DNA from: Candidatus Saccharicenans sp. | Lineage (GTDB): Bacteria > Acidobacteriota > Aminicenantia > Aminicenantales > Saccharicenantaceae | Length of the DNA: 64,000 nucleotides | Direction: 5' to 3' | Assembly (NCBI GenBank): GCA_030017715.1 | Contig: JASEIU010000001.1 | Span: 272,677 to 336,676 of the forward strand | Notes under the pieces: generated by a model | Database searches by the model: none | Seen by the model: the letters and a program-made list of their open reading frames with translations, nothing else | Told to the model about the DNA's origin: nothing | In this document: positions 550 through 57,874 of the stretch, piece by piece | Layout: the number at the start of each line of letters is the position of its first letter | Position numbering within the stretch: the stretch's first letter is position 1 | Made by a program: the position numbers and the translations under genes

Positions 550-1062
550 ATGGATCTGGTGCTGTTTGAAAGTAAGATAAAATATGACACCTGGTTTAAG
601 TTTATTCTGATTCTACCAGTTCTTCTTTTTGTAATTCTGGGAGTTCTGTTTTTTCTCGACACTCGGGGGCAGGAAATCTTTCCCGATCAATCCGCTGAAG
701 AATCCGGCCAGGCCTGGGCGATAATGCTGGCCGCTGGCTTTCTTATGCTGGCAATTTTCTGGCTTGTTCTTCCGAAATCGATAGCAGTTATTCCGGAAGG
801 AATTGTGCTCAGGTTCAGGGCCTTCAGCTGGAAGATACCATTTGAAACCATTTCCTCTGTACAACCAGTCTCAGGGATATTTGTCTTCTGGGGCCATTCC
901 TGGATCACTTCCTTTAGCCACCAGATAGAAATAATCCGGAGAGGCAGGCTTAAAATCAGGATCTGCCCGGATAACCGCCGGCAATTTCTGGAGCAGGCAC
1001 AAATAGCCCTGTCTGACTGGAAGAGAACTCATACGGCCTGGAAAGCACCGGGCTATCTGTAA
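550..1062 (+). CDS. Hypothetical membrane protein with two N-terminal TM helices and a PH-like soluble part
   Basis: A 170-residue protein. Residues about 17-36 and 58-77 are strongly hydrophobic and read as two transmembrane helices, joined by an acidic loop. The C-terminal 90 residues start with PEGIVLRFRAFSWKIPFETISSV, reminiscent of bacterial PH-like domains in which a beta-rich domain follows two helices. No catalytic motif is visible. The ATG at 550 has no obvious Shine-Dalgarno sequence. The neighbour on the right converges from the minus strand with only 6 bases between. Function unknown; the PH-like assignment is an inference from layout. Confidence 0.65.
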   Translation: MDLVLFESKIKYDTWFKFILILPVLLFVILGVLFFLDTRGQEIFPDQSAEESGQAWAIMLAAGFLMLAIFWLVLPKSIAVIPEGIVLRFRAFSWKIPFETISSVQPVSGIFVFWGHSWITSFSHQIEIIRRGRLKIRICPDNRRQFLEQAQIALSDWKRTHTAWKAPGYL

Positions 1063-1068
1063 ATCTGG

Positions 1069-1878
1069 TTAATTCAGTTCCCGCAGCCAGATGTTCCGGA
1101 ATCTTACCGGATGGCTGTGGTCCTGAAGCATCAGCGGTAGTTTCGGAGCATGGGCTTTGTACGGGGGGCGTGCCTTGTGAGCCGTCGGGCCGGTGAGCTC
1201 CGCGTCGTGGTGGATCAGAATGCCGTTATGGAATACAGTCATCCGGGCCGGTCTTACCAGCTGTCCGCTGCTGCCGAATTCGGGCGCGATGAACACGATA
1301 TCATAGGTCTGCCATTCTCCGGGCTGGCGGCAGGCGTTGACCAGCGGGGGATACTGTCCGTAAATAGCTCCGGCCATGCCGTCGGCATAGGTTTTGTTTT
1401 CGTGAGAGTCGAGCACCTGGACTTCATACATTCCCATCAGGAAAACGCCGCTGTTGCCGCGGTCCTGGCCTGAGCCTTTTGGAGGCTTCGGCGCCATCCA
1501 CTCGATGTGTAGCTGGCAGCTTCCGAAGCCGTGTTTTGTCTGAATGGCCCCGGTTCCGGGAACCACTTCCAGGTAGCCATTTTCAACCTTCCAGCGAGCC
1601 GGCTGTCCTTTGGAGTCGACCCAGTTGAACAGGTTCTGGCCGTCAAAAATAACCACGGCATCGGAGGGGGGAGGAAGGGGCGGCAGCGGCGGGCCCGGGA
1701 TAACCACCGGCGGGAGAGGCCTTTCCGGGTCGTGAATGGCCCACTGGTCAAGAGATTTTTTCTGTTTTGCTTCGTTGCCCCTGGCCCCGATGGCCAGAGT
1801 AATCGAGATGCCGGAGACCAGAATAAAGAGAAGAAGAGCAAAGTAAATTTTAGGCTGGTTTCTTCTCAAAGTTTTCAT
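1069..1878 (-). CDS. DUF1080 (3-keto-disaccharide hydrolase-like) exported protein
   Basis: A 269-residue protein with a hydrophobic N-terminal signal (residues 11-30), a proline-rich linker with LPPVVIPGPPLPPLPPP, then a DUF1080 domain. Family marks include VIFDGQNLFNWVDSKG, RWKVENGYLEV, GNSGVFLMGMYEVQVLDS and the closing FRNIWLREL. DUF1080 is a concanavalin-like fold; members are implicated in hydrolysing 3-keto-glycosides made by Gfo/Idh/MocA-type dehydrogenases. An AGGAGGAAAG ribosome site precedes the ATG at 1878. The 295 bases between it and the upstream oxidoreductase hold no gene I can see. The proline-rich linker suggests attachment at or beyond a membrane surface. Confidence 0.85.
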   Translation of the reverse strand: MKTLRRNQPKIYFALLLFILVSGISITLAIGARGNEAKQKKSLDQWAIHDPERPLPPVVIPGPPLPPLPPPSDAVVIFDGQNLFNWVDSKGQPARWKVENGYLEVVPGTGAIQTKHGFGSCQLHIEWMAPKPPKGSGQDRGNSGVFLMGMYEVQVLDSHENKTYADGMAGAIYGQYPPLVNACRQPGEWQTYDIVFIAPEFGSSGQLVRPARMTVFHNGILIHHDAELTGPTAHKARPPYKAHAPKLPLMLQDHSHPVRFRNIWLRELN

Positions 1879-2173
1879 TTCTTTCCTCCTCAGCCTCAGC
1901 TGTTTGGTGTAAGCATAACCGTCCTGAAGATTGGAGCATCTTCAGGAGCAGCTGCTTTTCTTGCCTGTTATCTAATCTATTTTTTAATTATTAAAAAGCT
2001 CCGATATCAAGATTCTAATATGAACCTTTTGCTTTCGTTCCGCAATTGCCGGCACTTTCGGGGTCCAAAAGCGTTTTCTGCGTTTTCAGATTCGGTTTTC
2101 TCTTGTTGCCTTACCCTGACCTTTTCGCTCCTTTCGGGCGGAATCGATATCTTAATCCACCGGTCTATGTTTT

Positions 2174-3574
2174 TTAGAGCTCCCAGCCCGAACGATATTC
2201 TTTATGCAGATACTGATTGGCTTCGGGCAGGTTGGTGAACTGGAAGTTCTGGCTGTCCCATTCCAGCACCACATTGTCGTCCTTGAAGCGGAGAGCGATG
2301 TTGCCCAGGAGCATCATCTCGGTCAGCGGGCCGGAGTAGGAAAAATCGGTTGTGGATTTCTTCCCTTCCTTGATGGCGGCTATCCATTCTTCATGAATGC
2401 CGGGTGAGCGGGGGATTGTTTTCTCGGGGCGTTTGTAGTCGCGCATCAGCTCGTCGGGCAGCAGGCGCGGGTTTTCTCCGTAGGTGCTGCAGACCAGCAA
2501 TCCTTTATCGCCGACAAACAGGCAGCCGCCGCCGTCGTCGCCCAGCCGACGACCCTTCGGCAGCTCTTTGGGTCTCGGCGGCATCAGACCGCCGTCGTAC
2601 CAGACGAGTTTTACGGGCGGCAGACCGTCACGTTCGGGAAATTCGTAGCTAACGATTTCAGCCAGCGGATAGGAATCCCTGGTGAATTTGGTGGAGCTGG
2701 CCTGGACACGGATCGGCGCTCCGAGTTTCAGGGCCCAGAAAGGCTGGTCTATCAGGTGGGCTCCCATATCTCCCAGAGCCCCGGTGCCGAAGTCCCACCA
2801 GCCGCGCCAGTTGAACGGACAGTAAGCCGGATGGTAGGGCCGCCAGGGGGCCGGGCCGAGCCACAGATCCCAGGAGAGAGTGGGCGGACAGGACGGAATT
2901 TCCTTTGGAGCCTCTATTCCCTGGGGCCAGATTGGCCGGTTGGTCCAGACGTGAACTTCCCGCACCGGGCCGATGGCTCCGTCCCAGATCCATTCACAGA
3001 TCAGCCTGGCTCCTTCTTTGGAGTGACCCTGGTTGCCCATCTGGGTGACCAGGTTTCTTTTTTCGGCTTCCTGACGCAGCAGCCGGGCTTCCTTGACCGT
3101 ATGGGTGAGCGGCTTCTGGACAAAGACGTGCTTTCCCATCTTGATGGCCATCATGGCAATTGCGGCGTGGGTATGGTCGGGCGTGCTGACGGTGATGGCG
3201 TCTATAGTTTTTTCCCGTTCCAGCATCTCACGGAAATCGCGATATATGTGTGCCTTTTCATATTTGGCTTTGTGCTCGGGGAGATGGTGGTCGGAGGTCA
3301 GGAACTTTTCCATCATCGTGGCGTCGACATCGCACAGGGCCACGATGTTCTCGCTGCTGACGGACTGGACATCCGAAAATCCTTTGCCCCCGACTCCGAC
3401 GCAGCCGATATTCAGGGTATCGCTCGGGGCTTTTTTCTTCTTGTCTTTCTGCGCGCCGATCACATGGCGGGGGACAATCATAAACCCGGCGGCCGAAGCG
3501 GCTGTTTTTCCAAGGAATTCCCGACGGCTGAGTGACCCGGATAGTTTATTGGCTTTTATTTCTTTTTCAGTCAT
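2174..3574 (-). CDS. Gfo/Idh/MocA family oxidoreductase with Tat signal
   Basis: A 466-residue protein. The N-terminus carries SRREFLGKTAASAAGFMI, a twin-arginine signal, so export in folded form with bound NAD(P) is expected. The Rossmann part has LNIGCVGVGGKG and ALCDVD; then VSTPDHTHAAIAMMAIKMGKHVFVQKPLTHTV, whose EKP-type motif is QKP here, and GNQGHSKEGARL typical of the exported subfamily. A C-terminal GFO_IDH_MocA beta-sheet domain carries WDFGTGALGDMGAHLID. The ATG at 3574 follows a GGAGGT-like site. Neighbouring DUF1080 and ThuA genes suggest oxidation or further processing of sugars or glycosides outside the cytoplasm. Confidence 0.9.
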   Translation of the reverse strand: MTEKEIKANKLSGSLSRREFLGKTAASAAGFMIVPRHVIGAQKDKKKKAPSDTLNIGCVGVGGKGFSDVQSVSSENIVALCDVDATMMEKFLTSDHHLPEHKAKYEKAHIYRDFREMLEREKTIDAITVSTPDHTHAAIAMMAIKMGKHVFVQKPLTHTVKEARLLRQEAEKRNLVTQMGNQGHSKEGARLICEWIWDGAIGPVREVHVWTNRPIWPQGIEAPKEIPSCPPTLSWDLWLGPAPWRPYHPAYCPFNWRGWWDFGTGALGDMGAHLIDQPFWALKLGAPIRVQASSTKFTRDSYPLAEIVSYEFPERDGLPPVKLVWYDGGLMPPRPKELPKGRRLGDDGGGCLFVGDKGLLVCSTYGENPRLLPDELMRDYKRPEKTIPRSPGIHEEWIAAIKEGKKSTTDFSYSGPLTEMMLLGNIALRFKDDNVVLEWDSQNFQFTNLPEANQYLHKEYRSGWEL

Positions 3575-3780
3575 TTTAACCTCCTGTTCATATATTGCTT
3601 ATTATAGAAACAGGCCTGAGGTCAAGAAGAATTATGGCTGTTGGAAATCCGGCCGACAGCCTCGCCCATCGAAAATTGCCCGATTTATGGACAGGGTTAA
3701 ATTCCGGACGGACTGGAGGTTTATGTCTTGCCAGGTTGGAGAGATAAACCTATATTTAAGGTGAGGGATTGTGAGGGAAA

Positions 3781-48604: not shown

Positions 48605-51262
48605 TTAGCGATAGATAATTGAATTGAAAAGAAATTTGAAGCTGCCGTGAGCTTGAGCCCTGTGGATGACATCAAATCCCAGCAGGACCACTGTGCCCTT
48701 TCCCACCTCGCAGCTCACGGCTGCTGATTTGTGCTTCAGTTTATCTCCGTTAAGCAGAATGCCACTGAGCAGCGAATCATAGGGCGGATACCAAGCCAGG
48801 TTATGAATCTTAGAGTTGCCGGCCCGTGATTCTGCCTCAGTCAGCTCAAAAACCGGGCTGAAGTAGGAAAAGATAGCCGCTTCTTCCTCCAGGCCAAAGG
48901 TTTCGGGTCTGGAATTATCAACCAGAACTTTTAGGATTGAACCGGGTGAATATACCCGTACCCGGCTGGCTGAGGTGGCCGGCTGGTCTCCCTGGCTGCC
49001 TCTTGACTGGCGCGGTTCGATGATATTCTTGAGGGGCAGCCCGAAATTATCAATCACAAAATCAGACGAGTTTTCCACCGCTATCAGTCGGCCTCCCTTC
49101 TGAACGAAAGAGATTAGGGCCGATACGCCCTCGATCCCCAAGCCGCCGGCATATTCTGGCGGGACTTCCCCCTTGCGCCGTCCTTCGAGAATCACCCAAC
49201 TGGAGATGGACGGCAGGATTAGGTGAGTAATTTTTTTTTCCAGCTGTCCGGCCCGGATATCAGCATTATGGAGTACTTGGAAATCGAATTCAAACTGCTC
49301 GAGAACCCAGCGGGTCCAGCCCTCATCCATGCTGGCCGTCCAGGGTTGATAGATACCCAGACGGTAATCTTTCAGCGGTCTGAGGCGAGCCGGCTCCACC
49401 GAGTCCAGACTTTCTATCCGCAGTCCCAGGCCTTTGCCCAGGGAAACAATCTGTGAAGGATTAACCCGGCTTTTTTCGATTACCAGACTGCCAGCCCGGT
49501 AGGTTTTATTCCCGGCTGAAAATTCCCGATCAGCGTAATTTACTGGCAGGTGGTGCTTCAGCAGCCGGTTGGCCAGAATCAGGCTGTTGTTTGTTCCGCT
49601 GTCAATTACCAGATATTTTCCGCTCCCTGTAATCTGACTGTCGGGAATAGAAATCGGTGTCAGAAGTTTCAGGCTGGCCTCAAATTTATTGCCGGCTTCT
49701 ATCACCCGAAGGCCCATCTGGAGCGGCAGAGTCCAGCTGGCTTCATCATAGGGAAGGTACTGGGCCGGATCGCGACCGGGCGGCAGAGGATAGGATTTGC
49801 TTTCCAGCAAATCCTTGACGAAAGCCCGGTAGGGCTGGGAGAGAAGGACCACATAGGTTCCGGCCGGGTATTCCTGACCGTCAGCTTTGAAGGGTTTGAT
49901 GGCTTGATGGACCTCGGCTCCGTTTTTCTGGATAACTTCCAGCAATTTCAGGGCGGTCGGCAGGTCTTTCTGGTCTGCGGGAATGAGGTAAGCATAGGGC
50001 GGTTCAGTAAATCCTTTATTGATCTGTCGTTCGGCGAACAGGCAGAAATTTTCCATGAATCTTTCTTTTTTTTCGGAGACAGTCCGCAGAAAGGACATGG
50101 CCACAATCAGTTCGTATTCCACTATATCGCGCAGCCGCCACCAGCCTCCGGGCCAGGGTTCAAGGTTGGTCGATAAAATTTCGTTGCCACCACCCGAGAT
50201 TCTGATCTCCGAAGGTCTGATAAAAATCGGCGAGGCTATGTTCACGCTGGCTGCCTCCGACAGTATTCCTAAGGCGTTATGCCTCAGGGGAGCTGCCCGG
50301 TTGGCCGTGTTGTACCAGCTGTCGAAGATGGTGCTGGTGGAAACCCCGGTTTTACCATGACGGGCAAGGCTGATGACTGCTTCACCGGTCAGCTGATAGA
50401 GTTCTCTCAGAAGCAAGGGGTCCAGGTTGGGATTGATAGGGTCCTGGTAGGGTGGCAGAAAAAGCCGCGGTCCACTGGAGCCCATCTGATGAATATCATA
50501 GACGACCAGCGGAAACCATTCCCGGTATAGCACTCTGGCCATCAGTTGTGATTCTTTCTGGGTGAGCATGAACCAGTCGCGGTTGTTGTCGTGTCCGGTG
50601 TAGTAGTGATACAGCCAGGGCATGGAGCTCCCTTCATACGGAGTTTCCAGCGTCCGGTAGTACCAGTCGGTAACCAGGTCGATGCCGTCGGGGTTGGCTG
50701 AGGGTATCAGGAGCAGTATCACCTGGTCGAGAATTTTCTTGATTTCCGGGCTGCTGTCGCTGGCCAGCCTGTAAGCCAGTTCCATCGACATCTGGGAAGC
50801 GGCAATTTCAGTCGAATGAATCGAACAGCTGATGTAGACAACCGCCTTACCCTCTTTTATGAGAGAAGCTTTCTCCTCCGGGTTGAGACCTCTGGGGTCA
50901 TGGAGCCGCGCCTGAATCTTCCGGTATTTTTCCAGGTCAGGCATGTTTTCTTCGGCGGTTATGATGGCCATGATCAGAGCCCGGCCGAGAGTGCTTTTGC
51001 CAAGTTCAACCACATTCACCCGTGCCGATGACTCTGCCAGCAAATTGAAGTAACCGGTTATCTTATTCCAATCGGCCAGTTTGAAATCCTGTCCCGGTTG
51101 AAAGCCCAGATATTTCTCGGGCGGAGTGATTTCAGCAGACAGAAAGCAGGGGAAGACCAGGAAGAAATTAATAAGCAAGACAAATGCGAAAAAACCTGAA
51201 AGAAAGTTTTCCGGTCTTAAAGAAATTGGGTATTTTTTAGTGGCGAGATGACTTAATCTCAT
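48605..51262 (-). CDS. M14 family zinc carboxypeptidase-like protein, exported
   Basis: An 885-residue protein with an N-terminal hydrophobic signal (LSGFFAFVLLINFFLVFPCFLSA). The M14 fold carries the zinc ligands in VVYISCSIHSTEIAASQ (H-x-x-E) and PLVVYDIHQMG (H). IPSANPDGIDLV and SEAASVNIASP are other family marks; the glutamate in SEA may be catalytic. The C-terminal 450 residues form additional domains typical of large M14 proteins in this group, including an ALISFVQKGGRLIAVENSSD segment resembling a glutamine amidotransferase-like fold. GGAG precedes the ATG. It likely digests extracellular or periplasmic peptides. Confidence 0.9.
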   Translation of the reverse strand: MRLSHLATKKYPISLRPENFLSGFFAFVLLINFFLVFPCFLSAEITPPEKYLGFQPGQDFKLADWNKITGYFNLLAESSARVNVVELGKSTLGRALIMAIITAEENMPDLEKYRKIQARLHDPRGLNPEEKASLIKEGKAVVYISCSIHSTEIAASQMSMELAYRLASDSSPEIKKILDQVILLLIPSANPDGIDLVTDWYYRTLETPYEGSSMPWLYHYYTGHDNNRDWFMLTQKESQLMARVLYREWFPLVVYDIHQMGSSGPRLFLPPYQDPINPNLDPLLLRELYQLTGEAVISLARHGKTGVSTSTIFDSWYNTANRAAPLRHNALGILSEAASVNIASPIFIRPSEIRISGGGNEILSTNLEPWPGGWWRLRDIVEYELIVAMSFLRTVSEKKERFMENFCLFAERQINKGFTEPPYAYLIPADQKDLPTALKLLEVIQKNGAEVHQAIKPFKADGQEYPAGTYVVLLSQPYRAFVKDLLESKSYPLPPGRDPAQYLPYDEASWTLPLQMGLRVIEAGNKFEASLKLLTPISIPDSQITGSGKYLVIDSGTNNSLILANRLLKHHLPVNYADREFSAGNKTYRAGSLVIEKSRVNPSQIVSLGKGLGLRIESLDSVEPARLRPLKDYRLGIYQPWTASMDEGWTRWVLEQFEFDFQVLHNADIRAGQLEKKITHLILPSISSWVILEGRRKGEVPPEYAGGLGIEGVSALISFVQKGGRLIAVENSSDFVIDNFGLPLKNIIEPRQSRGSQGDQPATSASRVRVYSPGSILKVLVDNSRPETFGLEEEAAIFSYFSPVFELTEAESRAGNSKIHNLAWYPPYDSLLSGILLNGDKLKHKSAAVSCEVGKGTVVLLGFDVIHRAQAHGSFKFLFNSIIYR

Positions 51263-51546: not shown

Positions 51547-51699
51547 TCAGGCGCAGGCAGGCGGCCTGGTTGTTTTATACCAAATGGTTCCGCAGCAATC
51601 AATGGTGGCAGCAGGGGCCTGTTCACCCTCAACCAGCTTTTTAAGGGCCAGAGTCGGTCTGGCGGATTTGAAGACATCCTCGCGGGAAGGCTCAATCAC
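51547..51699 (-). CDS. Candidate 50-residue peptide with a Cys-containing C-terminus
   Basis: A GTG at 51699 with AGGGTG about 10 bases upstream opens a 50-residue frame: polar, helix-prone residues 1-28 (EPSREDVFKSARPTLALKKL then VEGEQAPA), then DCCGTIWYKTTRPPACA. It has no hydrophobic signal peptide. Third codon positions are mostly G or C, as in real genes here, while overlapping plus-strand frames look like shadows. A leader-plus-core layout as in ribosomally made, modified peptides is possible, but no modifying enzyme is adjacent. Could also be a chance frame. Confidence 0.4.
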   Translation of the reverse strand: MIEPSREDVFKSARPTLALKKLVEGEQAPAATIDCCGTIWYKTTRPPACA

Positions 51700-51729
51700 T
51701 TTTTAGGCACCCTGGTACCAGTCGAGGCC

Positions 51730-52089: not shown

Positions 52090-52992
52090 ATGAGAAAATG
52101 GAACCGGTTAATGTCAGGCTGTTTAATCTTGCTTTTCTTCAATGATGTTCTTTTCTCCTGTGCGGATTTACCCGGAAAAAATTGATACCATCAGAAGTAT
52201 TTCCGGAAAAGGATGTTTATATTGAGTCGCCGCTGCCTATTGATGTTGATAAAGCGGGCAATGTAAAGGCAGTAGGAAACAGAGAATAAGCGATATTTAA
52301 GTTTGATCCAGAAGGCAAACCATTGCTTACCTTCGGCGGTCCGGGGCAGGGTCCTGGCGACTTACAATGGCCCTACTATTTTGATGTTAACGGGCGAGAA
52401 AAGACAATATTTGTGGCCGATAACATAGGGCTCAGTCTCTTTTCAACAGATGGTACCTTTATCAGAAGATTTAGAACATTTGGGCCGGTTTTATCTGTCT
52501 GCGCTACATCGCACAGTGTGTATCTTCTTCAACCGGGAGAACAGGGTTTAATTAATGAGTATAGCTATGAGGGTAGAGGGATCGGTTCCTTTGAGAAAAA
52601 ATATGAAGTTAATTATTCTCTATATAAGAATATGATAAGAATATGTCCTCAGGCTTAGTAGAGCGTTTTATAAATAGGGGGCTGTTCTGTCTGATGGCCA
52701 GTTTGTCTTTTTTGTTTCTTATTATTTCGGGGATGGGTTCAAGTTTAACTTGAAGGGAGAAAAAATCGCTGTCAGGCCATCAGGCGAGCTGAAGGGAAAA
52801 TCCAGGAATGAAAGGGTATTTTATAAAGAGGGGTTAACCTCAAAAAACTGACTGATTCATGCGCCACCCAGATTGATTAAAGATGCTGCCCTGGCTGATG
52901 GCAAATTATATCTATTAATTACCAGTTTTGCTCTTGATGGAGAGGAAATTGAGTCATCAACTCTTAAGTGTTGTAAACCGATACAAAATTAA
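52090..52992 (+). pseudogene. Broken 6-bladed beta-propeller gene
   Basis: An ATG at 52090 opens a lipoprotein-like signal (LILLFFNDVLFSCADLP) that soon stops. Joining frames gives EVFPEKDVYIESPLPIDVDK, a stop, then KPLLTFGGPGQGPGDLQWPY, FVADNIGLSLFSTDGTFIRR, further stops at about 52658 and 52850, and KDAALADGKLYLLITSF before a final stop at 52992. At least three interruptions are present. The G-x-G-Q-G-P-G-D motif and the S-x-D/E-G-x-F/L repeat match the intact beta-propeller at 54843-55844, so it is a decayed relative in inverse orientation. It could still be a source of recombination with the intact copy. Confidence 0.75.
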
Positions 52993-53134: not shown

Positions 53135-54118
53135 TCAGGATGTAATTTTGGGTTTCAGCTCTGACAGGCCGGCGATCATCTCGCTGACCCGGGTTCGTAA
53201 TTCCTGTAGTTGAGCTTCACTGGCTTCGGCCAGGTTTAGATGGACGCAGTCATTCCTGGTGTCCCACCATTTTTGTATATCTTCTTTCACCTGGTCGCTG
53301 AAAACCTTTCTGAGGGCCAGCTCTTCGAGTTTCTCTGGCATCGGACCCGGCGGATAAATTTTATGCCTGGTCTGGAGTTCGGAAAAGATCTTATTAATCA
53401 GGCATTCCAGTTCCTTTCCGGCCAGGATGCCGGCGATTTCCGGGTCTTTTTCCAGAAAAGACTCGGCCAGGTCCAGGTAATAAATGTTTTCCCGGCGAAG
53501 GCGCTGCAGGGCGTTGCGGGCTGAAATTTTTTTGATCGGATTTGGCTGCTGAAGGTAATTCAGATAAATCTGGTGATAGTCGGGATTCTGCCTCAGATAT
53601 TCTTCGTTCAGCAGGCAGCAGAGGGCAAAGAGAGCCATATCGACGTCGGCTATCCGCTCGAAATCGTAAGCTTCCTGCAGCTCGCTCAGGTTATCCAGGT
53701 AGGTCAAATATTTTTTAACCGGCGTTTCTGCCCGAATGGCCAGCAGATTTTCCACCGGGGCGCTGTAGATACCGTAATGCTGGGGGCAGATAACCCGGAG
53801 CAGGCAGGAGAGAATCTCGATGTTCAGGAAGAGGTCAAAGAGCTTCTGGACCACTCTTTCATTTTTAGGCCCGGGGTTCCGGAAAATCCATTTCATCGCT
53901 TCCAGCTCAGCCGGCTTCAGTTCGGGAAGCTTCCACCAGGCGGGGAAAAGGTTATCCCGTTGCAGAGCTTCCAGATGTCGGCGGGAAAATTCTTCCTGAC
54001 CAAGCCTGACCGGCTCCATGAATTTTTCCAGCCGGCTGAAGTCCAGCGTGCCGCCGTACTTGAGGTTCCCGAGACATTCATACAGACCGAGCAGCCGTTT
54101 CAGGTCGAAGTGGTTCAT
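53135..54118 (-). CDS. Hypothetical protein with HEPN-like C-terminal motif
   Basis: A 327-residue, all-helical, soluble protein. The C-terminal part has GKELECLINKIFSELQT and DIQKWWDTRNDCVHLNLAEA; R-N-D-C-V-H (about residues 288-293) is the R-x4-H motif found in HEPN domains, which in many toxins and defence proteins is an RNase site, and in others only a fold. The N-terminal 200 residues are not recognised. No antitoxin-like partner (such as a nucleotidyltransferase) is adjacent. It lies between the broken and intact beta-propeller loci. Assignment to HEPN rests on this motif and the helical pattern only. Confidence 0.7.
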   Translation of the reverse strand: MNHFDLKRLLGLYECLGNLKYGGTLDFSRLEKFMEPVRLGQEEFSRRHLEALQRDNLFPAWWKLPELKPAELEAMKWIFRNPGPKNERVVQKLFDLFLNIEILSCLLRVICPQHYGIYSAPVENLLAIRAETPVKKYLTYLDNLSELQEAYDFERIADVDMALFALCCLLNEEYLRQNPDYHQIYLNYLQQPNPIKKISARNALQRLRRENIYYLDLAESFLEKDPEIAGILAGKELECLINKIFSELQTRHKIYPPGPMPEKLEELALRKVFSDQVKEDIQKWWDTRNDCVHLNLAEASEAQLQELRTRVSEMIAGLSELKPKITS

Positions 54119-54351: not shown

Positions 54352-54843
54352 CTATTTTCCCGCCAGCTCCAGTATTTTCTTTTTGTTTAAGTCTCTTCTT
54401 GTCTCAAAATCGAGCAACGGATCATCCAGGTGGAAAACTTCTCCCTTTGAATCCAGAACCACCACAAACGGCTCGAGTCTAACCCGGAATCGCCTGAATA
54501 AAGTTTTGCTCCGGTCTTCAATTATTGGATAGCCGAATGAATACCGACGGGCGAACTGAGCCAGCTGCTCCCGGTTTTCGGCCGAAACGCCTACCAGAGT
54601 GACAGGGAGAGCCAGCCGGTCCACAAAATCCTTCATCTCAAATAGTTCTTCCCAGCAGACATGACAGGTCAGTGATATGAACACCAGGACCAGCGGTCGG
54701 TGCCCGTAGCCAGCGATTTCTTCGAGCGAGTTGTAGATGCTGCCCGATAAAGGTTGGCTCTGGCCTGCGAGTAGGGACAAATTAAGCAGAATGACCGAAC
54801 CCAGAAAAACAGAGGTTAAAAAGATGGCAATTGATTCCTTCAT
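54352..54843 (-). CDS. Exported thioredoxin-fold (TlpA/AhpC-TSA-like) protein with CHVC motif
   Basis: A 163-residue protein with an N-terminal signal or anchor (IAIFLTSVFLGSVILLNLSLLAG). The thioredoxin-like fold is shown by RPLVLVFISLTCHVCWEELF, with C-H-V-C as the redox pair, and later VRLEPFVVVLDSKGEVFHLD in the position of the cis-proline loop (L-E-P-F). C-x-x-C with H-V is unlike the CPPC of TlpA. The ATG overlaps the beta-propeller stop by one base (TAATG), so the two are translationally coupled. A role in forming or correcting disulfides of the Cys-pair peptides encoded upstream is inferred from position. Confidence 0.85.
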   Translation of the reverse strand: MKESIAIFLTSVFLGSVILLNLSLLAGQSQPLSGSIYNSLEEIAGYGHRPLVLVFISLTCHVCWEELFEMKDFVDRLALPVTLVGVSAENREQLAQFARRYSFGYPIIEDRSKTLFRRFRVRLEPFVVVLDSKGEVFHLDDPLLDFETRRDLNKKKILELAGK

Positions 54844-55844
54844 TATGAACCTTCCCGATAGATAAAAAGTTCATCTTCGGCGTTCAGAATATAAAAGGTC
54901 GTCCCGTCGGTAGCCAGAAGCCTGATGGCCTGGGGAAATATTATCTTTTCCAGGATTTTGCCCTGCCGGCTGATGACATAGACCTCTTTTCCCGGACCGA
55001 GGTCACCCTGGCCGTCTAATTCAGGTATCAGGAGGTAAAACTTGTCTCCATCCCAGGCCATATTCCAAAAGACGACATCGATTGGTTTCTTTCCGATTTT
55101 AAGAGGGAGCATAATCCGCTTAAGAGGATAGGCTGGGTCCAGTTTAATTTCTTCCGCTATCTTCCCCTCGGACTTAATTTTCAGGATTTGTGGAGTTTTG
55201 TATTTATGAAGAACAAATATATTTCCCTGGGCATCTTTTTGCAGGAAGATTTCATTTATCAGGGTGAAGTAAACCGAATCGGATGAAGGAATAGGGTTTA
55301 GGGCCTTCCATTTCAGTGTTCCCCTGGAATCATAGCAATGCAACAAAGATTCCTGGCTCTGGAACGGATTGGGGCGGCCGGAGACGACAATCCGTTCCGG
55401 ATTGATCACTACCAGGTGAACCGGGATTAGGTCAACTCTGAAGCTGCTCAACAGCTTTCCCTCCGGGCTTAAGATTTTGATTCGGCGATTGAAGGAATCG
55501 GCCACATAGAGTTTTTGGTCATGGATATCAAAACCCATCGGGGCGTCGAATTCCTCTGGACCCTGACCCTGGTTTCCAATGGTCATTTTCAGTCGGCCGT
55601 CTGGTCCGACCAACTTCAGACAATTATCCCCGGTTTCTGAAACCATAAGACCGACCGAAGAAAGTAATAAGGCAAAAGGCTTAAAAAAGAAAGGCCGGTG
55701 CTGTGTTCCGTTGAGACGGACTTCTTTAACTTCCTGGCTCGGCACTGGCTGGCTCATAGTCTCCAGGGGGACAAGGGTCAGAAGAATCGGAAGAAGCAAA
55801 CCAATTATGTTTTTCCCCCATTCCATCCTTGCGTTCGATTTCAT
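54843..55844 (-). CDS. Exported 6-bladed beta-propeller protein
   Basis: A 333-residue protein with a signal peptide (IIGLLLPILLTLVPLETMS). Blades contain NQGQGPEEFDAPMGFDIHDQ and KLYVADSFNRRIKILSPEGK, close to NHL-type repeats and to the 6-bladed beta-propeller family (Pfam PF17170 type) found in Bacteroidota and Aminicenantes. AAGGAGG lies upstream of the ATG, after a strong hairpin that separates it from the two small peptide genes. Its role is unknown; such propellers often bind peptides or glycans. In other phyla the family sits beside short signal-peptide proteins (NVEALA type) and TlpA-like proteins, a layout matched here with a different small protein. Confidence 0.88.
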   Translation of the reverse strand: MKSNARMEWGKNIIGLLLPILLTLVPLETMSQPVPSQEVKEVRLNGTQHRPFFFKPFALLLSSVGLMVSETGDNCLKLVGPDGRLKMTIGNQGQGPEEFDAPMGFDIHDQKLYVADSFNRRIKILSPEGKLLSSFRVDLIPVHLVVINPERIVVSGRPNPFQSQESLLHCYDSRGTLKWKALNPIPSSDSVYFTLINEIFLQKDAQGNIFVLHKYKTPQILKIKSEGKIAEEIKLDPAYPLKRIMLPLKIGKKPIDVVFWNMAWDGDKFYLLIPELDGQGDLGPGKEVYVISRQGKILEKIIFPQAIRLLATDGTTFYILNAEDELFIYREGS

Positions 55845-55875
55845 TACTAGAATCCTCCTTATAATAAATTTAGAA

Positions 55876-55905
55876 AAGGGGCCTGCTTTTATGGGCAGGC
55901 CCCTT
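55876..55905 (-). terminator. Strong hairpin between the peptide genes and the beta-propeller gene
   Basis: AAGGGGCCTGC pairs perfectly with GCAGGCCCCTT (11 bp) around an 8-base loop; on the minus strand it is followed by TTTTC. It lies 7 bases past the second peptide stop, so it should end most transcripts and let a fraction read through to the propeller and redoxin genes. Confidence 0.8.
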
Positions 55906-55911
55906 CGTCAG

Positions 55912-56145
55912 TTACAAAAAGAGGAAAATGTAGCAGAGTATTCTTTTGATCTCGCAGGCCTCGAGGGCGTGACAGGTAGCAATGGGACCCTGGTCAGACA
56001 GCATCACTTCTACCATGCATCTATACCAGATCTTATCACAGATGTTTTCTTCTTCTGCTTGAGAATCAGAGGGCCAGGCCGCAAGAATAGATAGCCCCAT
56101 AAGTATAGCCAGTGCTAAAGCGGTTGTTTTTTTCATTGTTATCAT
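55912..56145 (-). CDS. Small exported protein with twin C-x6-C pairs, paralog B
   Basis: About 77 residues from the ATG at 56145 (MITMKK; GAGAG upstream); a further ATG at 56136 is possible. A Sec signal (TTALALAILMGLSILAAWP) with cleavage near SQA precedes a 45-residue mature part. Cysteines follow C-x6-C-x20-C-x6-C exactly as in paralog A, with an extra cysteine in the x20 segment. Shared positions: W at C1+4, R before C2, and S-D-x-G-P in the middle. The hydrophobic tail YIFLFL is unlike A. Eight bases separate it from A. Family not recognised; a disulfide-stapled helical hairpin is the inferred fold. Confidence 0.8.
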   Translation of the reverse strand: MITMKKTTALALAILMGLSILAAWPSDSQAEEENICDKIWYRCMVEVMLSDQGPIATCHALEACEIKRILCYIFLFL

Positions 56146-56153
56146 CGGCTCTC

Positions 56154-56378
56154 TCAGACGATCTTCATCAAACAATTGCCCAGAGCAATGTCGCAGAGGG
56201 TTAGAGCCAGGGTGGTTCTTACGGGGCCATAATCAGAAGCCAGAGCCCGGGCCCGGCATCTTTCCCAGTTGTCCCAGCAGGAATCAGCCGGATTCTCTGC
56301 CTGCCCGGCCAGCGAAAGCAGCGAAAGTGTAGAAAGAATAAAAATTGTGGTCAGTGTAACGGCCATTGCCTTTTTCAT
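56154..56378 (-). CDS. Small exported protein with twin C-x6-C pairs, paralog A
   Basis: A 74-residue protein with AAAGGAGG before its ATG. The signal peptide (AVTLTTIFILSTLSLLSLAG) is probably cut after GQA, leaving about 47 residues. Mature cysteines: CWDNWERC, 20 residues, CDIALGNC. The i,i+7 spacing would put each pair on one helix face, so two cross-links between antiparallel helices are plausible, as in twin CX9C or CX3C proteins. SDYGP in the linker is shared with paralog B. It is the first gene after a sigma-54-type promoter and a very strong ribosome site, so high, regulated expression is expected. I do not recognise the family. Confidence 0.82.
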   Translation of the reverse strand: MKKAMAVTLTTIFILSTLSLLSLAGQAENPADSCWDNWERCRARALASDYGPVRTTLALTLCDIALGNCLMKIV

Positions 56379-56926: not shown

Positions 56927-57874
56927 TCAGATCAGGAATTTACCGTTCTTGGCTATGTATTTTCCCTTGGCGATAATGGTGACTTTATCCACCAGGGCAT
57001 CATAATGGTGCTTGCTCTTGTTCTTGCCGATGCCGTAAGAGTCGCCGATGGCAAAGTGAACCGTGCCGAAGGCCTTTTCCGCTTCCAGCATGTTGGGGCA
57101 GATGCGAGCCCCCGGATTGGTGCCGATGCCGAACTCTCCGATTATGAACCCGGTCTGGTCGGAGCCGATATTCTTCACTATGGCTTCGATACCCTTGCCC
57201 TTCCAGCGCACCAGCCGGCCTTCCTTGAATTCCATCTCGCCGTGACCCAGCCTGTCGTCGATCAGGCTGATAACCAGCCGGCCGGTGAAGGTTTCCTCAA
57301 CCGGACAGGTGTAGCATTCTCCGGCCGGCAGGTTGCCGTGCCGGCCTTTTTTCCCGATGTCGCCGTTGTCATTATGCCACTCTCGTCCCCTGACGCTGAA
57401 GCTGATGTTGGTCCCGGCTTCGTTTTCGATGATTACCCGGTCGGCGTCTTTCATGGCCCGGATGACTTTCTTGGTGAATTCATTCATCCGGCTGAAGTCG
57501 ATGTTGACCAGCCTTTCCATCATGTCGACGGTAATGCCGGGCATCATGCAGATCCGGCTGAGCTTCATTCCCTGGCTGACCATAAAGCCGCGGAAGGGCT
57601 TTTCTTCAATTCTGGCTTCCAGCAAATAAGCGATGACACTGGCTTTCTCCGTCAGCAACTTGAATAATTTGGTGGGACCGTCTATCGGCCGCAGGGTTTC
57701 GGTCATCAGGTAGGTGGTGGTCTCGGCGCCGGCTTTCCTGGCATAAAAGGCCAGGGCCTCGGCTATTTCCAGCTTCTGTTTATCGGTGACCAGGAGAAAA
57801 CTTTCTCCGGCTTTAATTTTAAGGGATTGAAAGATGGCCTTTTCGGCCGCCTGATAAAGTTTGGTGGCTTTCAT
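56927..57874 (-). CDS. M29-like metallo-aminopeptidase
   Basis: A 315-residue protein without signal peptide. Family marks are ENEAGTNISFSVRGREWHND, NLPAGECYTCPVEETFTG, GEFGIGTNPGARICPNMLEAEKAFGTVHFAIGDSYGIG and KSKHHYDALV; the glutamates and histidines here are the metal ligands of the M29/AmpS-type leucyl aminopeptidases. It removes N-terminal residues from peptides in the cytoplasm. The OPT transporter lies just upstream (18 bases) on the same strand, so uptake and cleavage of oligopeptides are linked in one operon. Confidence 0.88.
   Translation of the reverse strand: MKATKLYQAAEKAIFQSLKIKAGESFLLVTDKQKLEIAEALAFYARKAGAETTTYLMTETLRPIDGPTKLFKLLTEKASVIAYLLEARIEEKPFRGFMVSQGMKLSRICMMPGITVDMMERLVNIDFSRMNEFTKKVIRAMKDADRVIIENEAGTNISFSVRGREWHNDNGDIGKKGRHGNLPAGECYTCPVEETFTGRLVISLIDDRLGHGEMEFKEGRLVRWKGKGIEAIVKNIGSDQTGFIIGEFGIGTNPGARICPNMLEAEKAFGTVHFAIGDSYGIGKNKSKHHYDALVDKVTIIAKGKYIAKNGKFLI

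What the first reader, a model, noticed from the sequence alone, without database searches (positions are those of the whole stretch)
55912..56378. Tandem exported miniproteins with a shared C-x6-C-x20-C-x6-C pattern
Two adjacent genes encode short signal-peptide proteins whose mature parts differ in sequence but keep all four cysteine spacings, W at C1+4, R before C2 and a central S-D-x-G-P. The i,i+7 cysteine spacing suggests two helices stapled by two disulfides. I know twin CX9C and CX3C families, not a twin CX6C one. Function could be a signal, a bacteriocin-like agent or a structural surface peptide.
Basis: partly seen in the sequence, partly recalled or inferred. Interest (0 to 1): 0.82.

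Follow-up and report, generated by a model that had tools for sequence, protein, structure and literature searches.

The report
Disulfide-hairpin miniprotein operon in Acidobacteriota

Summary
Both 74-aa genes encode a leader and a C-x6-C-x20-C-x6-C domain, and they are paralogues (BLASTP 2e-8). They belong to a real family: of 54 distinct relatives in 43 loci, 49 keep that spacing, one has x17, and four lack C1 and C4. In more distant Acidobacteriota sub-groups the CX6C pairs stay and the loop is 17-29 residues. The family is in 33 of 34 genomes of the window's taxonomic family and 46 of 94 of its order. Pfam and NCBIfam gave no credible match.

The larger finding is the operon: miniprotein, propeller, CxxC redoxin, and often an ABC-2-like permease plus ATPase. 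The first three are consecutive in 38 of 43 loci. A stem-loop follows the last miniprotein gene in 38 of 38 (p<=0.05 against shuffles in 30), suggesting the miniprotein is made in excess. AlphaFold2 gives a helical hairpin. The genus has VKOR (18 of 19 genomes) but hardly any DsbD/CcdA (1 of 19).

Best reading: a disulfide-stapled hairpin, the abundant product or partner of a dedicated periplasmic propeller/redoxin/ABC system. Function is inferred, not shown.

The parts
56154..56378 (-). Miniprotein gene B (74 aa): leader plus C-x6-C-x20-C-x6-C; the copy most like the rest of the order
   Evidence: dN/dS 0.11-0.29 where measurable
55912..56136 (-). Miniprotein gene A (74 aa): tandem paralogue with the same spacing plus one extra Cys; evolves faster
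55875..55906 (-). Stem-loop (13-nt arms, one mismatch, 6-nt loop) 5 nt after the stop of gene A, between the miniproteins and the propeller gene
   Evidence: (z -3.87); equivalents in 38 of 38 loci; compensatory change at 8 of 13 pairs in 11 related loci; not listed by the generic terminator scan
54843..55844 (-). Beta-propeller of the NHL / '6-bladed' kind with an apparent leader, 333 aa; next gene of the operon
   Evidence: PF17170 1.3e-5, over cut-off; AF2 mean pLDDT 89.9, Foldseek NHL domains best E 9.3e-13
54352..54843 (-). Redoxin with an apparent leader, 163 aa, CxxC (CHVC); overlaps the propeller gene by one base
   Evidence: PF00578 2.4e-13; C60, C63 and P125 invariant in 16 of 16 aligned
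53135..54118 (-). Unknown 327-aa protein following the redoxin in part of the genus; not part of the wider operon
   Evidence: no Pfam over cut-off, no NCBIfam; found in 10 of 43 loci
56927..57874 (-). M29-type peptidase, genus-level flanking gene (not part of the system)
   Evidence: found in 13 of 43 loci

Best explanation
The two genes are members of a new family of exported miniproteins that fold in the envelope as an antiparallel helical hairpin held by two nested disulfides (C1-C4, C2-C3). They are the first and probably most strongly expressed genes of an operon for a periplasmic system: the hairpin is the product or small partner made in excess (stem-loop after its gene), the redoxin together with the cell's VKOR-type oxidase makes or corrects its disulfides, the propeller binds it, and where present the ABC-2-like permease and ATPase move the hairpin or a ligand, or drive the complex. 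Shown by sequence: family, spacing, gene order, stem-loop, CxxC, VKOR present and DsbD/CcdA nearly absent. Predicted: the hairpin fold and the leaders. Inferred: disulfide pairing, excess expression, propeller binding, transport role.
For: Twin CX6C kept in 50 of 54, only the loop varying in the distant sub-groups. AF2 hairpin; 34+69 = 41+62 = 103, so the cysteines are level. Joint loss of C1 and C4 in 4 paralogues of one neighbourhood. Miniprotein, propeller and redoxin consecutive on one strand in 38 of 43 loci (in L073 the propeller hit is in two pieces); permease in 23, permease plus ATPase in 20. Redoxin (E<=1e-12) in 39 of 94 order genomes, all 39 with the miniprotein. In another Acidobacteriota class, miniprotein, propeller-like gene, permease and ATPase recur. 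Stem-loop after the last miniprotein gene in 38 of 38, 35 distinct arms, p<=0.05 against shuffles in 30 of 38, compensatory pairs. VKOR in 18 of 19 genus genomes, DsbD/CcdA in 1 of 19 against 10 of 14 controls. Two paralogues (L042, L050) lie divergent from related genes, that of L042 a VKOR-DsbA fusion by Pfam.
Against: No experiment; no direct evidence of binding. The redoxin profile does not hit beside the miniprotein in the two other classes, so it is not indispensable. One locus (G066:C121) has propeller-redoxin-permease-ATPase without the miniprotein, and the window's own locus and 14 more of the 38 lack the permease (some lie near contig ends). In the class of G268 the propeller-like gene has no Pfam match and only HHalign probability 29%, and the permease does not match ours by profile. 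The stem-loop has no long T-run in many loci, so it may stabilise the 3' end rather than terminate; 8 of 38 loci are not below p=0.05. Foldseek found no significant match for the hairpin (best E 2.1).
Confidence: 0.5

Rival explanations
1. An exported peptide acting on other cells (bacteriocin-like or a signal), with the ABC-2-like transporter for export or self-protection and the redoxin as a disulfide-forming accessory protein.
For: Small, cysteine-rich, leader-bearing, apparently made in excess; one operon ATPase (L073) is related to lantibiotic-protection ATPases (TIGR03740, 5.5e-48, below its cut-off); gene A evolves faster; one member matches the NprX pheromone family at 7e-4.
Against: Present in 33 of 34 genomes of its family, with the same OPT/M29 genes upstream in 13 loci; gene B conserved; net charge of the mature part -4 to +1, neutral or negative in 30 of 32; the ATPase matches GldA and DrrA better; a propeller is no usual bacteriocin gene (recalled).
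Confidence: 0.15
2. A redox relay: the miniprotein is a dithiol/disulfide carrier that exchanges electrons with the redoxin, and its cysteines cycle.
For: Strict conservation of the cysteines and of the redoxin CxxC; adjacency. The 29-loop sub-group has an extra C2-x2-C motif in 6 of 6 loci.
Against: No C-x2-C in the 54 members; cysteines two turns apart on one helix and level across the hairpin look structural; no DsbD/CcdA electron supply found in 18 of 19 genomes; no redoxin hit beside the miniprotein in two other classes.
Confidence: 0.13
3. A PedA1A2BC-like uptake or efflux module in which the hairpin is the small periplasmic ligand-binding part of a propeller/ABC-2 transporter for a metal or small molecule.
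For: PedA2 (propeller), PedB (ATPase) and PedC (permease) are the nearest described combination that I found; the propeller of L068 and the ATPase of L073 cross-hit TIGR03866 and TIGR03864 below cut-off.
Against: PQQ dehydrogenases and PedA1-like proteins were not searched for and none was identified among the few neighbours I annotated; the hairpin is small for a usual binding protein; 15 of the 38 operons, the window's among them, lack the permease.
Confidence: 0.17
4. Chance open frames with accidental cysteine spacing.
For: None beyond small size.
Against: Homologues, purifying selection and conserved operon.
Confidence: 0.005

Closest known systems
PedA1A2BC ABC system of Pseudomonas putida (PQQ/lanthanide alcohol oxidation; NCBIfam TIGR03864, TIGR03866)
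   Same: Non-cytoplasmic beta-propeller encoded with an ABC ATPase and permease (passages of PMC12997753)
   Different: No cysteine hairpin or redoxin in the passages seen; part of a PQQ-dehydrogenase cluster with a substrate-binding protein; our proteins score far below the family cut-offs
Twin CX9C / CX3C (CHCH, small Tim) proteins of mitochondria (recalled)
   Same: Two antiparallel helices, two CXnC pairs, nested C1-C4/C2-C3 disulfides, a dedicated thiol oxidoreductase (their features recalled)
   Different: Spacing is six, not nine or three; bacterial, with an export leader; no such Pfam family among the hits
Alpha-hairpinins (Luffin P1, VBP-1, Jug r 2 leader)
   Same: Solved hairpins at ranks 1, 4, 20, 25 and 30 of 62 for the model
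   Different: E-values 2-7, not significant; plant seed peptides with CX3C spacing (recalled)
NVEALA peptides of Bacteroidota (PF14055; context recalled)
   Same: Small exported peptides said to lie near six-bladed propellers (recalled, not tested)
   Different: PF14055 has no match in the window's genome and is not among the families hit by 49 members

Membership tests
Twin CX6C hairpin family (this report) | Leader plus C-x6-C-loop-C-x6-C | tested here: met
   the leader judged by eye
Twin CX6C hairpin family (this report) | Helical hairpin with cysteines level | tested here: met
   AF2 model, block pLDDT 92-94 for residues 31-70; prediction only, distances not measured
Twin CX6C hairpin family (this report) | Followed by a propeller gene | tested here: met
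   38 of 43 loci; 17 of 26 further loci by HMM plus 5 propeller-like
Twin CX9C / CX3C (CHCH) | CX9C or CX3C spacing | tested here: not met
   spacing six in 50 of 54
Alpha-hairpinin | Significant structural match | tested here: not met
   best E 2.1
NVEALA (PF14055) | Match to the Pfam model | tested here: not met
PedA1A2BC-like ABC system | NCBIfam TIGR03864/TIGR03866 at cut-off | tested here: not met
   119.1 of 302.25 bits (L073 ATPase) and 15.4 of 287.3 bits (L068 propeller)
PedA1A2BC-like ABC system | Propeller beside ABC-2 permease and ATPase | tested here: met
   permease plus ATPase in 20 of 43 loci; not in the window's own locus. ABC-2 Pfam over cut-off in 1 of 3 permeases of this group tested (L073), just below in L071, none in L058
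PedA1A2BC-like ABC system | Linked to a PQQ dehydrogenase | not tested
   no search made
Bacteriocin with dedicated immunity | Kills competitors | not testable with these tools
   no assay; composition and conservation argue against
AhpC/TSA-type thiol-disulfide oxidoreductase (redoxin 54352-54843) | PF00578 over cut-off and CxxC | tested here: met
   50.6 bits, cut-off 26; CxxC

The most novel reading that the evidence does not exclude
A new kind of bacterial envelope system in which an abundant twin-CX6C hairpin is exported, oxidised by its own redoxin (a bacterial parallel to Mia40 and twin-CX9C proteins), received by a propeller and coupled to an ABC-2 transporter; it is ancestral or widely shared in Acidobacteriota.
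Probability: 0.3. Interest if true: 0.78.

Novelty: new variant of a known kind. Interest (0 to 1): 0.62.

Why it matters
It defines a family for which Pfam and NCBIfam gave no credible model, gives it a predicted structure, partners and an expression clue, and makes its function testable in heterologous hosts. It also names an uncharacterised propeller/redoxin/ABC operon found in nearly all genomes of one family of uncultured Aminicenantes, and suggests disulfide-stapled helical hairpins with a spacing other than CX9C/CX3C in bacterial envelopes.

Tried and rejected
Chance frames: rejected. Membership in known families: Pfam and NCBIfam scans of 49 members gave only scattered weak hits (best 7.1e-4 for one member, NprX pheromone family; PRK06764 0.0068 for two; HdeA 0.0046 for two). 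PDB sequence search: 30 of 31 hits are antibody chains matched over profile positions 1-19 to 1-26 only, which I take to be bacterial expression leaders (inference); the other is a cytochrome at E 0.9. Plasmids: one hit at E 0.8, dismissed. Weak phylum hits: G305 and G323 have stops inside; G094 has an irregular pattern and no context; G373 was only glanced at on one strand. G510 (E 0.007) was not followed. L148 (11-residue loop, no propeller) and L119 (x20, no neighbour found) stay unexplained. NVEALA context could not be checked: the control genome that matched was not fetched. My first neighbour clustering used a crude gene caller that misreads GC-rich frames; clusters such as c7 and c17 are artefacts, and the HMM maps replace it. 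One search counted 46 rows because the first genes of 8 tandem pairs slipped in (z -1.3 to +1.44 there; 29 of 46 rows below -2, upstream stretches 4 of 45); searches use one row per locus. Papers (full-text searches): 'twin CX6C' 0, 'NVEALA' 0, Aminicenantes with beta-propeller 0, five hairpin terms together 0; propeller/redoxin/small secreted/operon gave one unrelated fungal paper; Saccharicenans two surveys, listing only. Two Ped papers were seen in passages.

Full report
What is there. The two frames are real and as described: gene B 56154-56378 (-) and gene A 55912-56136 (-), 74 aa each, with a leader followed by C-x6-C-x20-C-x6-C. They are paralogues (BLASTP 2e-8). The window lies in a 2.89-Mb genome of 18 contigs. 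Contigs of the same length as those of the same-genus genomes G014 and G015 bear the names Candidatus Saccharicenans subterraneus and Candidatus Saccharicenans sp., so I take the window to be from that genus of Aminicenantes (inference).

A family. A two-sequence profile found matches in 48 of 99 related genomes at E<=0.1, 70 places in all, the last ones weak. I fetched 43 stretches, which hold the 55 places with E<=0.0013 and one of the 15 weaker ones, and iterated locally: 56 hits, 54 distinct. 49 of 54 have C-x6-C-x20-C-x6-C (five of them with a further cysteine, two of these in the leader region), one has a 17-residue loop, and four, from one neighbourhood, keep C2 and C3 but lack C1 and the C4 position (one of them has a cysteine one place further on). 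The profile favours cysteines, so these counts are partly selection. With a wider alignment (A4) the family is found in 46 of 94 genomes of the order at E<=0.01: 33 of 34 in the window's taxonomic family and 13 of 60 elsewhere, four of these 13 weak, of which G086 is backed by a propeller next door. Some of these genomes supplied rows of A4 and match partly by construction.

Further out. In an even draw of 396 genomes of the phylum, profile A2 hit 22, of which 16 lie in the order and two of the other six (G114, G268) held up by context. In the class of G268, 7 of 193 genomes match, and in the class of G114 6 of 9. Contexts show three further sub-groups: loops of 17-18 residues (10 loci in nine Saccharicenans genomes, one in another family), 19 residues (class of G268, 6 loci) and 29 residues with further cysteines, a C2-x2-C among them (class of G114, 6 loci). 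The CX6C pairs keep their length in all of these. Pfam and NCBIfam found no credible family.

Selection. Nei-Gojobori dN/dS between the window's gene B and 9 orthologues is 0.11-0.29 where dS is not saturated (8 of 9 pairs), and for gene A 0.22-0.32 over the full length (5 of 6 pairs) and 0.39-0.56 in the mature part (4 of 6). So gene B is the conserved copy and gene A a faster-evolving tandem duplicate.

The operon. HMM maps of the 43 loci (the window's own is L074; L053 and L054 are nearly the same) put miniprotein, propeller and redoxin consecutively on one strand in 38 (37 if L073, whose propeller hit is in two pieces, is left out). The exceptions are L042, L043, L048, L050 and L051. A permease follows in 23 of 43 and an ATPase after it in 20. 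Of three permeases of this group given to Pfam, PF12679 (ABC-2) was over its cut-off in L073, just below in L071 and absent in L058. The window's own locus has miniprotein B, miniprotein A, propeller, redoxin, and no permease or ATPase. In the 26 further loci, a propeller by HMM follows in 17. In the 17/18-loop group (11 loci: L073, L120, L121, L150-L157) propeller and redoxin follow in all, with permease and ATPase divergent in 9 and co-directional in 2. In the class of G268 a propeller-like protein (5 of 6 loci; profile comparison with our propeller over 257 columns, E 5.8e-4 but HHalign probability only 29%, and no Pfam match in the three tested), a permease and an ATPase (5 of 6) and a further protein (5 of 6; CarboxypepD_reg in the two given to Pfam) follow. 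The permease of that class did not match ours by profile, so its role is equated by position only.

Co-occurrence. The redoxin profile at E<=1e-12 hits 39 of 94 order genomes, and all 39 have the miniprotein; of the other 55, seven have the miniprotein, three of them (G006, G007, G016) with a redoxin below that cut and four weak. Of three redoxin places away from a known miniprotein, two are cut by contig starts and one (G066:C121) has propeller, redoxin, permease and ATPase without a miniprotein upstream. In L042 and L050 the miniprotein is divergent from related genes; that of L042 is VKOR plus a DsbA-like thioredoxin domain.

The stem-loop. Just after the last miniprotein gene, and before the propeller gene, 38 of 38 loci have a stem of at least 8 bp (G-U allowed, at most one mismatch) within 75 nt, with 35 distinct arms. 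Against 60 dinucleotide shuffles, 30 of 38 reach p<=0.05. The stretch upstream of the miniprotein shows nothing (median z 0.06, 4 of 45 below -2). The 8 tandem junctions between miniproteins lack it. In an alignment of 11 related loci, 8 of 13 predicted pairs show a compensatory change. Of the 23 loci in the other sub-groups, 7 reach p<=0.05 within 60 nt, and of 18 loci re-examined within 130 nt, which can reach into the propeller gene, 11 do. In the window it is at 55875-55906 (-). A mixed population of short and long transcripts would leave the miniprotein in excess. This is inference; a 3'-stabilising role is equally possible, and a generic terminator scan did not list it.

Structure. AF2 for gene B (23 sequences): helix 2-24 (leader), 30-47 and 51-73, mean pLDDT 83.1, pTM 0.55, block means 92-94 for residues 31-70. 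34+69 and 41+62 both make 103, so both pairs are level in an antiparallel hairpin. I had no coordinates, so Cys-Cys distances were not measured. Foldseek gave nothing significant; Luffin P1, VBP-1, neurotoxin B-IV and Jug r 2 hairpins are at ranks 1, 4, 5 and 20, 25, 30 with E 2-7. The propeller model (mean pLDDT 89.9) matches NHL domains, best E 9.3e-13.

Redox setting. The redoxin has invariant CxxC and P125 in 16 of 16 aligned sequences. VKOR is found in 18 of 19 genus genomes, in open frames of 307-457 aa, long enough for a fused thioredoxin domain that I did not test there, and DsbD/CcdA in 1 of 19, while 10 of 14 control genomes have it. Without that electron source a disulfide-making or isomerising role is more likely than a reducing one.

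Function. I favour an oxidised hairpin made in excess as product or partner of a periplasmic propeller/redoxin/ABC system (0.5). The nearest described arrangement that I found is PedA1A2BC. In the passages I saw (not the whole papers), PedA1A2BC of P. putida is needed for growth at low lanthanum and is read as an importer (PMC6839425), and PedA2 is a PQQ-associated beta-propeller, PedB the ATPase and PedC the permease (PMC12997753). Our proteins fall below the family cut-offs, so this is 'works like', not 'is'.

Limits. No other phylum was searched with the family profile by the genome search (one search failed); the one scan of genome contigs with narrow patterns brought 17 loci like ours and one doubtful short match in a record called Clostridia (L116, 34% over 41 residues), not followed. 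The named records are metagenome-assembled. Related genomes are not independent. The loci were chosen by the miniprotein, so the context counts describe its neighbourhood, not the reverse.

Noticed in passing
window 52182-52660 (+): A decayed or partial relative of the operon's propeller in the opposite orientation (tblastn up to 2.5e-8 within 52182-52580; open frame to 52658).
   Followed up: partly
window 51556-51720 (-): Remnant (55 aa, 65% identical) of a 489-aa protein that is encoded next to the operon in L052.
   Followed up: no
L048, L062, L064, L065: Paralogues that lack C1 and C4. In L048, L064 and L065 they come after a TonB-dependent receptor (Pfam run on L048 only) and a 346-348-aa protein; in L062 the same two genes are there with two other genes between.
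   Followed up: partly
L158 (G066:C121) 731-3760: Propeller, redoxin, permease and ATPase with no miniprotein gene upstream.
   Followed up: partly
L117, L138-L141: A homologous large protein (frames of 481-763 aa; CarboxypepD_reg in the two tested, L138 and L141) follows the ATPase.
   Followed up: partly
window 48605-51262 (-) and L118 9350-12259 (-): M14-type peptidases, 36% identical over 852 aligned positions, near the miniprotein-propeller pair in two distant Acidobacteriota; could be coincidence.
   Followed up: partly
genus of the window, 19 genomes: VKOR-containing frames in 18 of 19 but DsbD/CcdA in only 1 of 19.
   Followed up: yes
L149 9728-10301: Two tandem, very divergent twin-CX6C proteins (loops 21 and 19) followed by a propeller in another genus of the order.
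   Followed up: partly
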